A stretch of 64,000 nt of DNA from Longimicrobium sp. (lineage in GTDB: Bacteria; Gemmatimonadota; Gemmatimonadetes; Longimicrobiales; Longimicrobiaceae). The stretch covers positions 1 to 64,000 of the forward strand of contig DASVWD010000234.1 in assembly GCA_036389795.1 (NCBI GenBank). Reading direction: 5' to 3'. The translations under genes were made by a program, and so were the position numbers. Of the stretch, positions 36,703-62,034 are shown in pieces (positions within the stretch are counted from its first letter, which is position 1; each line of letters starts with the position of its first letter). The notes under the pieces are model-generated. The model worked only from the letters and a program-made list of their open reading frames with translations. It was not told where the DNA came from and searched no databases.

Positions 36703-36851
36703 GGTTTTGGGCGTGTCCCTCCGCTGCGCTCCGGGCCGGGCTGCGCGCGCGGTAGGGCACGATACGACTGTGCCCAACCGCGCCGGGCCGCCGCCGCCAC
36801 GATACCCCTGTGGCGGCGGCGTCCCGGCCCTGTCGGGCGCGCATCCCTCAC
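36703..36851 (-). repeat. Branched ~145-nt element, copy in minus orientation
   Basis: Read on the minus strand it starts GTGAGGGATGCGCGC and ends GGGACACGCCCAAAACC. Hairpin I is a GCCGCCGCCAC / GTGGCGGCGGC stem. Hairpin II is GGGCAC / GTGCCC. Confidence 0.85.
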
Positions 36852-36879
36852 GCGGGGGTCTCGTCGCGGAGATGAGTTC

Positions 36880-46347: not shown

Positions 46348-47433
46348 GACTGGCTCCGAATGTGTCTATGCGATACCGCGGCCCACGGGGCCCGCTGCCG
46401 CCGCGTCCGCTGGAATTGTTCCGATGAAGCTGGGAAAAGAGACCAGGGAGGAGGCGCACCCGCGCCCTGAGCCGGATAGGCGGTCTTGGCTGTGAGACGG
46501 TACGCGCAACCTAACGACCGCTTTTTTCCCGCGCAAGACCAAACGTTTGGCGGGTTTCCGGCCTGGCGCCGCGGAATGTTGCCGCTGTCCCTGGTGTCGG
46601 TTCGACCGGCCCGCGCGCACGAACCGGGCCACGCTCCCGCCACACGCGCGCGCAACGTCTTGCCCTGTATCGCTTTTCAAGGCGCGGCGCCCAACCTTTC
46701 GCGGCGGTCTGATGCGGGGGAGATACCCGCCGGAGCGCGCCAGGTGCCATGAGCCCGGCTCACTAACACAACTCTTACGATTCCTTAATCTTAGACCCGG
46801 TCCAGACGGCCCCCGCGACCGCATACCCCGGCGCCGCGCCGGTCTCCGGACGTTGCCGCGCGCCTGGGCCGGCCGCGGAGGCGCCGCGCATCCCGTGTCG
46901 GAAAACGTCGGCTGCGGTACGGATCCCAGGACGGCTCGCGTCGGGTACCCATCGCGGGAACCCACGCGGGATGCGGCGGCCGCGTGAGGGATGCGCGCCC
47001 GGAGGGCCAGACCGGGGCGGCCGGGCAGTTTCGGCCGACGCGGGCCCGGCGCGGTTGGGCAGCGTTGTTTGCTGCCCTACCGCGCGCGCAGCCCGGCCCA
47101 GAGCGCAGCGGAGGGACACGCCCAAACCGAAGTGCGAAAGTGCTGAGTGCGAAAGTGGTGGATGCAGGCTGACTCTCGCACTCTCGCACTCTCGCACTCT
47201 CGCACTTCAACTACCCCGAGAGAGCCTTCCGAACCATTCGGCGCGAAGCAGGCCGGCCGGTGCCGCACCGGTGTCCCACGCTGGGGCGCGGGTGGGACTG
47301 CGGGCGGGGAATGCGCGCCCCGGCCCGGACGACGCCGTACCACCGCCGCCCACGCGGAAATCCCTGAAAACAAAGGGGTGTACGCATCGTCCGCTTCGTG
47401 CGCTCCAGCCCGCGCCGCGGCGCGGTACGCTCC
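46348..47433. other. Largest gene-free region (rho upstream)
   Basis: About 1.1 kb. Next to rho is a purine-rich stretch, then CGCTTTTTTCCCGCG (46520-46535) and an AT-rich spot TTCCTTAATCTTAGACC (46780-46797) that could be promoter material. A branched element follows at 46984-47128, then GTGCGAAAGTGCTGAG and CTCTCGCACTCTCGCACT tracts (47129-47210). No gene is visible. Confidence 0.75.
46984..47128 (+). repeat. Branched ~145-nt element, plus orientation
   Basis: It starts GTGAGGGATGCGCGCCC and ends GGGACACGCCCAAACC. Hairpin I is CGGCCG / CGGCCG and hairpin II is GGGCAGC / GCTGCCC, flanked by the conserved GCCCGGCGC and CAGCCCGGCCC segments. Confidence 0.85.
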
Positions 47434-56587: not shown

Positions 56588-57427
56588 GTGACGGGGGATC
56601 GGGAGAGGCCGCTCCGCCTGGGGCACATCACGTACAGCAACTGCTTCCCCGTCCACGCGCGGGTGATCGACCGCGGCGCGCCGGACGGCATCGAGGTCGT
56701 CGAAGGCGTGCCGTCGTTCCTCAACCGCCTGCTGGAGCGCGGGGAGATCGACGTGGCTCCGTCCTCCAGCATCGAGTACGCGCGCCACCCGGACCGCTAC
56801 CGCATCCTCCCGGACCTGGTGATCGGCTCGCGCGGCGCGGTGCGCAGCATCCTCTTCCTCTCCCAGCGCCACCCGTCGGAGCTGGACGGCGCCACGGTGG
56901 CGATGCCGACCGCCTCGGCCACCTCGGTGGTGCTGCTCAAGATCCTGCTCGAGAAGCGGTGGAAGGCCCGGCCGCGCCCGGTGTGGTTCGACCAGGCGCG
57001 CGACGACCCGTTCGCCGCCGGGGCCGACGCGGCGCTCTTCATCGGCGACGTGGCGCTGCGCGCGGAGCTCCACCCCGAGACGCACTTCCGCTACGACCTG
57101 GGCCAGGAGTGGTACGAGCAGACCGGGCTCCCCTTCGCCTTCGCGGTGTGGCAGGCGGGCGGCGGCACCGACGAGCAGCTCCGCTGCCTGCACCGCACGC
57201 TGCTGGAGTCGCGCGCCTACGGGCTGGAGCACCGGGCGGAGCTGGCCGCGCGCTACGCCGGCCGCTTCGGCTTCCCGCCCGAGTTCCTGGACGCGTACTG
57301 GGCCGGCCTCTCGTTCGAGCTGGACGCGGCGATGGTCGGCGGCCTGCGCGAGTTCTACCGGCTGGCGGCGGAGATCGGCGAGATCGGCGAGGCGCCGGAG
57401 CTCAGGTGGGTAGCCGGAGGCGGCTGA
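56588..57427 (+). CDS. mqnA: Chorismate dehydratase, futalosine menaquinone pathway
   Basis: 279 residues from GTG 56588, behind GGAAGGGGG; an in-frame ATG at 56519 would add 23 residues of repeat-derived sequence. The start [18 protein letters not shown], the substrate-binding [20 protein letters not shown] and [14 protein letters not shown], and the C-terminal [11 protein letters not shown] are characteristic of MqnA, which converts chorismate to 3-enolpyruvylbenzoate, the first step of the futalosine route to menaquinone. Other mqn genes are not here. The stop codon lies inside the first hairpin of a GCAACAAC repeat. Confidence 0.95.
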
Positions 57428-57474
57428 AGCCGCGGCGACAACGGCAGAAAGCCTCGCAAACTGCGCGAGGCTTC
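57421..57474 (+). repeat. GCAACAAC two-hairpin element, copy 8
   Basis: Hairpin 1 CGGC-TGAA-GCCG contains the mqnA TGA in its loop. Then GCGACAAC, and AGCCTCGC / GCGAGGCT. Confidence 0.82.
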
Positions 57475-57494
57475 AACCGCAACGGCACGTTCGC

Positions 57495-57645
57495 GTGAGG
57501 GATGCGCGCCCGGAGGGCCGGGACGCCGCCGCGACACGGGGTATCGTCGCGGCGGTGGCCCGGCGCCCGTTGGGCACGGTCGTATCGTGCCCTACGGCGT
57601 GCGCAGCCCGGCCCGGAGCGCAGCGGAGGGACACGCCCAAACCGC
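57495..57645 (+). repeat. Branched ~145-nt element, plus orientation
   Basis: It starts GTGAGGGATGCGCGCCC. Hairpin I is GCCGCCGCGAC / GTCGCGGCGG around a GGGGTATC-bearing loop. Hairpin II is GGGCACG / CGTGCCC. It is followed by GTGCGAAGTGCGAAG repeats to 57681. Confidence 0.88.
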
Positions 57646-57694
57646 AGTGCGAAGTGCGAAGTGCGAGGTGCGAAGTGCGGTCGGCGGTTCGTCG

Positions 57695-61869: not shown

Positions 61870-62012
61870 GGTTGCGGGCGTGTCCCCCTGAAGGGGGCCG
61901 GGCTGCGCGCGCGGTAAGGCAGCAAACCACGCTGCCTAACCGCGCCGGGCCCCGGTCGCGCCAAACCCCACGGCGCGCCCGCGTCCCGGCCCTCCGGGCG
62001 CGCATCCCTCAC
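61870..62012 (-). repeat. Branched ~145-nt element, minus orientation
   Basis: Read on the minus strand, hairpin I is CGCGCC / GGCGCG around a GGGGTTT-bearing loop and hairpin II is AGGCAGC / GCTGCCT, so the first pair changed from G-C to A-T relative to the other copies. Confidence 0.85.
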
Positions 62013-62034
62013 GCGGGTCTCGTCCGGATGGGGC

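What the first reader, a model, noticed from the sequence alone, without database searches (positions are those of the whole stretch)
57495..57645. Four copies of a branched ~145-nt element with compensating stem changes
Copies are at 46984-47128 and 57495-57645 (plus) and 36703-36851 and 61870-62012 (minus). All start GTGAGGGATGCGCGC and end GGGACACGCCC, with a possible closing stem GGGCCGG/CCGGCCC around two hairpins. Hairpin II reads GGGCACG/CGTGCCC, GGGCAGC/GCTGCCC, GGGCAC/GTGCCC and AGGCAGC/GCTGCCT, so pairs change on both sides. Hairpin I stems differ completely, but three of the four copies keep a GGGGT loop. That pattern points to selection for RNA or DNA structure, not just copying. 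All four sit in gene-free gaps, two of them right next to a MITE-like element.
Basis: seen in the sequence. Interest (0 to 1): 0.75.

Follow-up and report, generated by a model that had tools for sequence, protein, structure and literature searches.

The report
Branched, strand-biased intergenic DNA repeat family
A bacterium of the Longimicrobium group carries roughly 230 differently worded copies of a ~145-base sequence that always keeps the same multi-armed fold and tends to point the same way relative to DNA replication, which suggests an undescribed mobile DNA element whose fold, not its exact letters, is what gets preserved.

Summary
The four copies are real and belong to a family of about 230 (head matches, <=1 mismatch) in this 7.5-Mb genome; it occurs patchily across one bacterial family and in no genome sampled outside it. 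Covariation is strong: 24 of 44 pairs changed on both sides, score 0.228 against 0.064 for shuffles. Hairpins I and II share a loop, roughly GNNGTWT. The 102 intact copies examined all differ; arms of one helix are tightly associated (V 0.66-0.99), while different helices assort freely. None overlaps a called gene, none is visibly decayed, about 10% have lost the inner arms. Orientation follows local GC skew (85:34), confirmed on a second batch and independent of gene direction; RAYT-type REPs show the same bias, two control repeats do not. No Rfam match; no reverse transcriptase or TnpB in this genome. Most likely a non-autonomous mobile DNA element that folds as single-stranded DNA on the lagging-strand template, REPIN-like but branched, enzyme unidentified. 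RNA function is not excluded.

The parts
57493..57636 (+). copy 1, full element (outer stem to outer stem)
   Evidence: covariance model 130 bits; DNA fold z -4.1
57493..57507 (+). 5' strand of outer helix: P1 GCGTG, A, P1b GGG, A, P2 TGCGC
   Evidence: invariant or covarying pairs
57509..57517 (+). hairpin 0: CCC-GGA-GGG; loop GNA or GNNA in the family
   Evidence: alignment
57518..57563 (+). hairpin I with base CCGGG/CCCGG, variable distal stem, loop containing GGGGTAT
   Evidence: covariation
57564..57599 (+). hairpin II, constant T.T mismatch, loop GTNGTWT (this copy has one extra base in the base stem)
   Evidence: covariation in 10 of 12 pairs
57601..57609 (+). 3' strands of P2 (GCGCA) and P1b (CCC)
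57612..57630 (+). hairpin III (CCC-GGA-GC-GCA-GC-GGA-GGG; other copies CCCC-TTCA-GGGG etc.)
57632..57636 (+). 3' strand of P1 (CACGC)
   Evidence: G-C to A-T double change in 11 of 72 copies
57637..57648 (+). weakly conserved 3' tail CCNRAACCNGCAGT
   Evidence: flank information content
46982..47121 (+). copy 2, full element
   Evidence: 111 bits
36711..36853 (-). copy 3, full element
   Evidence: 141 bits
61878..62014 (-). copy 4, full element
   Evidence: 123 bits
57419..57474 (+). neighbouring REP, same two-palindrome layout as the repeats flanking a Y1 (RAYT) transposase gene in this genome; not part of the element
   Evidence: sequence comparison with L032

Best explanation
It is a non-autonomous, REPIN-like mobile or formerly mobile DNA element whose active form is the folded plus strand, exposed as single-stranded DNA on the lagging-strand template during replication. 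Shown: high copy number; restriction to one bacterial family with patchy abundance; placement only between genes; a conserved branched fold with compensating changes; one-sided orientation relative to GC skew; frequent loss of the inner arms. Inferred: an enzyme recognises the fold and the repeated GNNGTWT loops of hairpins I and II and cuts and pastes or copies the element as single-stranded DNA, so only folding copies spawn new ones. The enzyme is unknown.
For: Copy number and patchiness within one genus: about 230, 60, 47, 23, at least 19, 2, 1, 0, 0, 0. No match in 125 genomes of other families in the order. 0 of 75 and 0 of 39 copies overlap called genes. Absent from the corresponding sites of relatives at two loci, including relatives rich in copies. 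Orientation follows GC skew: 51/75 in the first batch (p 0.002), 30/39 in the second (p 0.001), 18/20 there at strong skew; skew given gene direction p 0.0013 and 0.00015. Two control repeats show no bias while RAYT-type REPs show the same bias. Covariation and within-helix association. Twelve of 114 copies lack the inner arms, often between GCGC repeats. IS608/ISDra2 use the lagging-strand template (PMC6006769); REPIN hairpins carry compensatory changes (PMC3116915).
Against: No transposition intermediate or clean empty site was seen, and no target-site duplication. No enzyme was identified: the two Y1 transposase genes have other REPs, and RAYTs form no clade shared by copy-rich genomes. No identical young copies: 102 of 102 differ, and decayed copies are missing, so a simple burst does not fit. 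Skew bias was not significant in the small G030/G040 sample (13:11). GC skew is only a proxy for replication direction.
Confidence: 0.5

Rival explanations
1. A multi-copy structured RNA (in untranslated regions or as small RNAs): the fold is selected because the plus-strand transcript acts as a regulator, stabiliser or protein-binding RNA.
For: Strong covariation and conserved loops. Among tandem contexts 34 sense versus 15 antisense in the first batch. Non-standard pairs shared by several copies in hairpin I include G.T but never A.C, so plus-strand wobble seems tolerated there.
Against: Orientation is explained better by GC skew than by genes. Outside hairpin I wobble pairs are 2 of 2040 against 5 A.C, whereas tRNAs of these genomes have 5.3%. 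No Rfam match. Near-absence in sister species argues against an essential role.
Confidence: 0.25
2. No selection on the fold at all: the arms are kept complementary by template switching at near-palindromes during replication, and copies are homogenised by recombination.
For: Near-perfect Watson-Crick pairing with few intermediates; free assortment of helices; deletions at hairpin bases.
Against: Does not explain invariant unpaired bases, the shared loop motif, the two invariant A.G sites, orientation bias, or the lack of decayed copies. P1 arms ~135 nt apart stay matched while everything between reassorts.
Confidence: 0.1
3. A host signal read on the lagging-strand template, such as a primosome-assembly or replication-polarity site.
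For: Strand bias up to 22/24 and 18/20 at strong skew; regular fold; intergenic spread.
Against: Zero to two copies in several species of the same genus.
Confidence: 0.1

Closest known systems
REPINs / REPs mobilised by RAYT (TnpA-REP) transposases (PMC3116915, PMC3733652, PMC6006769)
   Same: hundreds of intergenic copies, imperfect palindromes with compensatory changes, lagging-strand logic, often adjacent to other REPs
   Different: a branched fold with an outer helix and four hairpins instead of one or two hairpins; no GTAG/GTGG foot; not the repeat that flanks either Y1 transposase gene here
Bacterial MITEs (ERIC, NEMIS, RUP and others)
   Same: 70-300 bp, intergenic, non-coding, high copy
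   Different: only a 5-bp outer stem instead of 15-30 bp terminal inverted repeats; no target-site duplication
IS110 bridge RNAs
   Same: structured element with two functional loops
   Different: here both loops are the same motif, no open reading frame is attached, and only one weak IS110 gene is in the genome
Integron attC sites
   Same: folded single strand, structure conserved over sequence
   Different: dispersed rather than in cassette arrays; no integron integrase above the family cut-off

Membership tests
REP/REPIN | GT[AG]G tetranucleotide at the foot of the hairpin | tested here: not met
   5' foot is GC[GA]TGAGGG and the upstream flank is variable; the complement of hairpin II has GTA but the following G is lost in variants
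REP/REPIN | same repeat flanks a RAYT gene | tested here: not met
   the two Y1_Tnp genes in the genome carry other REPs and no head or tail of this element within ~1.5 kb; 18 loci in relatives likewise show no full element
REP/REPIN | high-copy, extragenic, hairpin with compensatory changes | tested here: met
MITE | terminal inverted repeats of 15-30 bp | tested here: not met
   outer stem is 5 bp, then a mismatch and 3 bp
MITE | target-site duplication | tested here: not met
   left and right flanks of a copy are no more alike than flanks of different copies
Known RNA family (Rfam 15) | match at curated threshold | tested here: not met
Structured RNA | transcribed as a functional RNA | not testable with these tools
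   no expression data
Structured RNA | wobble pairs tolerated on the RNA strand | tested here: inconclusive
   almost absent outside hairpin I, shared G.T but no shared A.C inside it
TnpB omega-RNA element (IS605) | TnpB gene in the genome | tested here: not met
   PF07282: no match in own genome
Retroelement | reverse transcriptase in the genome | tested here: not met
   PF00078: no match in own genome, 98% complete
Integron attC | integron integrase | tested here: not met
   TIGR02249: none over cut-off in 10 genomes
IS110 bridge RNA | RNA encoded beside an IS110 recombinase | tested here: inconclusive
   one weak IS110 gene in the genome against ~230 copies; adjacency not examined

The most novel reading that the evidence does not exclude
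A new class of mobile single-stranded DNA element with a branched, multi-arm fold carrying two copies of the same recognition loop, propagated on the lagging-strand template by an enzyme not yet known, with helices that reassort freely between copies.
Probability: 0.35. Interest if true: 0.78.

Novelty: new variant of a known kind. Interest (0 to 1): 0.63.

Why it matters
One genome offers a natural experiment: over a hundred sequence-different but fold-identical copies, so the contribution of each helix and loop can be read from variation alone. Tight association within helices with none between them is hard to get by plain copying, and the replication-strand bias ties the fold to single-stranded DNA. 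If mobility is shown it would extend the REP/REPIN idea from simple hairpins to branched structures and point to a new single-strand DNA enzyme.

Tried and rejected
Target-site duplications: none. RAYT as partner: REPs differ, no shared clade (three RAYT loci gave no usable protein and three recovered rows were probably wrong frames). Autonomous parent with the same ends around an ORF: none in the ~829 kb screened. Reverse transcriptase, TnpB, integron integrase, IS110. Empty sites by synteny: sites lack the element in relatives but spacers are too diverged to show a junction. Viral contigs: none. Single matches in Rhizobiaceae, Actinomyces and Methylobacterium lack the rest of the element, so chance. 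A first count of wobble pairs left out hairpin I; including it weakened the DNA-versus-RNA argument.

Full report
Observation. The four copies are in the window as described. With the outer stem they span 46982-47121 (+), 57493-57636 (+), 36711-36853 (-) and 61878-62014 (-). The 15-base head occurs 230 times with at most one mismatch in the window's own genome (7.5 Mb, 285 contigs) and 0 times reversed as control. Forty stretches plus the window (829 kb) gave 76 intact copies, four of them cut at a contig end, and 7 copies without the inner arms; a second set of forty stretches (708 kb) gave 34 full and 5 short copies. The stretches were chosen around listed copies, so densities are not genome averages. 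Covariance-model scores are two-peaked: intact copies at 111 bits or more, deletion forms near 45, then only reverse-strand echoes and weak matches; decayed copies were not seen.

Anatomy. From the alignment and folds: P1 GCGTG/CACGC, an A.G site, P1b GGG/CCC, an A.G site and P2 TGCGC/GCGCA form one long interrupted helix. Inside P2 sit hairpin 0 (CCC, loop GNA or GNNA, GGG), hairpin I and hairpin II; hairpin III lies on the 3' side between P1b and P1. A weakly conserved tail CCNRAACCNGCAGT follows. Single-strand DNA folding of the plus strand gives this layout for the window copies (hairpin 0 is shortened or missing in some minimum-energy folds), with z-scores -3.3 to -6.3; the minus strand also folds stably but its best fold lacks P1b. 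Hairpins I and II end in the same kind of loop, about G(N2-3)GTWT: hairpin II is mostly GTNGTAT or GTNGTTT, hairpin I mostly GGGGTAT or G(G)GGGTTT. In a related genome hairpin I carries CAACAGCAGTATCGTTG, nearly the tip of hairpin II, so the two arms look like duplicates (inference).

Covariation. On 46 diverse copies 96.6% of pair cells are standard pairs against 86.5% after shuffling; 24 pairs have changes on both sides against 12.6; the covariation score is 0.228 against 0.064, and at most 0.041 when partners are slid. The alignment was made by sequence only, but the structure was drawn from one of its rows, which favours 'cells paired'; the double-change measures are less exposed. In 102 full own-genome copies, all different, the arms of one helix are associated with Cramer's V of 0.95, 0.99, 0.95 and 0.66 (the last is hairpin I, loosely parsed), whereas 14 of 15 pairs of different helices show no association and the fifteenth (hairpin 0 with I) has p = 0.012 uncorrected. 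P1 arms, ~135 nt apart, stay matched while everything between reassorts. Clonal copying from a few sources does not give that; helix-by-helix selection, or arm-to-arm correction, does (inference).

RNA or DNA. Outside hairpin I's distal stem, own-genome copies have 2 G.T and 5 A.C among 2040 pairs, while 40 tRNA genes from these loci have 46 wobble pairs in 873. In hairpin I, G.T occurs at several positions in 2 to 38 copies and A.C only as singletons. So wobble evidence is mixed: little wobble overall, but where non-standard pairs spread they favour plus-strand wobble. It does not decide the question. The GNA and GNNA loops resemble known extra-stable DNA mini-hairpin loops (own knowledge; not tested).

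Orientation. The plus strand lies on the strand with G over C in 51 of 75 copies (p 0.002), 31 of 36 where skew exceeds 0.02. After removing the coding-strand effect from third-position skew, skew still predicts orientation given gene direction (p 0.0013). A second batch of loci repeated it: 30 of 39, 18 of 20 at strong skew, p 0.00015 given gene direction, and no significant effect of gene direction (22 of 39). Two other intergenic repeats, taken away from elements, show no bias (27:35; 7:10) and the genome's RAYT-type REP shows the same bias (26:11; 46:25 with a second pattern). The G030/G040 sample was too small to show it (13:11). G-rich usually means leading strand, i.e. the sequence of the lagging-strand template (established knowledge), which is where IS608-type elements act (PMC6006769). 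Replication direction itself was not observed.

Setting. No copy overlaps a called gene by more than 30 bases (0 of 75, 0 of 39; gene calls come from a home-made hexamer caller). Other repeats stand at set distances: 20 of 31 copies of the repeat ending CGGACTCGCAGGCTCGCCCCTACG lie 20-32 nt upstream, and 16 of 55 AGTGCNN arrays start 8-30 nt downstream, with free-standing examples of both. Left and right flanks share no site duplication. Short forms lose hairpins 0, I and II; three of them are identical and cut exactly between the P2 arms, as expected if GCGC repeats at the hairpin base slip during replication (inference); spread of a short form is an alternative.

Distribution. Same bacterial family: five more genomes in four genera; other families of the order: 0 of 125. 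Named genome records with the full element are Gemmatimonadetes MAGs only; placing the window in the Longimicrobium group rests on these matches and general resemblance. At two window sites the relatives lack the element.

Mechanism. I favour a non-autonomous mobile element recognised as a folded single strand on the lagging-strand template. What is shown is the fold, covariation, free assortment, strand bias, intergenic placement and patchiness; mobility itself and the enzyme are inferred. The genome has no reverse transcriptase, no TnpB and no clear integron integrase, leaving its two Y1 (RAYT) genes as the only known single-strand transposases found among those tested, and these have different REPs. 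Against a fresh burst stands the lack of identical copies; against old dead repeats stands the lack of decay. Fast turnover with recombination between copies would reconcile these (inference).

Known kinds. Nothing in Rfam and nothing in the paper searches describes it; those searches cover open-licence papers only. REPINs share copy number, location and compensatory changes (PMC3116915), but the REP membership tests for the GTAG foot and a cognate RAYT gene fail. I rate it a new variant of the structured-repeat kind.

Noticed in passing
L031 and L032 (two Y1 transposase loci of the same genome): Each RAYT gene is flanked by its own two-palindrome REP; the L032 type is also scattered between genes, e.g. 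window 57419-57474, and shares the element's strand bias.
   Followed up: partly
L061:5645-5709 and about 30 other places; beside window copies 36711 and 61878: A ~64-nt repeat ending CGGACTCGCAGGCTCGCCCCTACG stands 20-32 nt upstream of the element in about two thirds of its occurrences, in one orientation; it also exists alone.
   Followed up: partly
many intergenic gaps, e.g. window 57645-57690 and 34849: Heptamer arrays AGTGCGN, often directly after stop codons and followed by their inverted counterpart, begin 8-10 nt after many element copies.
   Followed up: partly
G000 contigs C4, C10, C31, C33, C46, C51, C59, C77, C138, C153: The assembly breaks inside copies of the element, so the true copy number is probably higher.
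   Followed up: no
L039 / L174: In one relative a copy is interrupted in hairpin I by a sequence that looks like an insertion-sequence end.
   Followed up: no
L234, L238, L244: Three separate loci hold the same 51-nt short form, cut exactly between the P2 arms; either a repeated slippage product or a short form that spreads itself.
   Followed up: no
L202 and L192 (two other genera): Much diverged relatives keep hairpin 0 and the hairpin II loop CAGTCGTAYCG although the outer helix has changed sequence.
   Followed up: no
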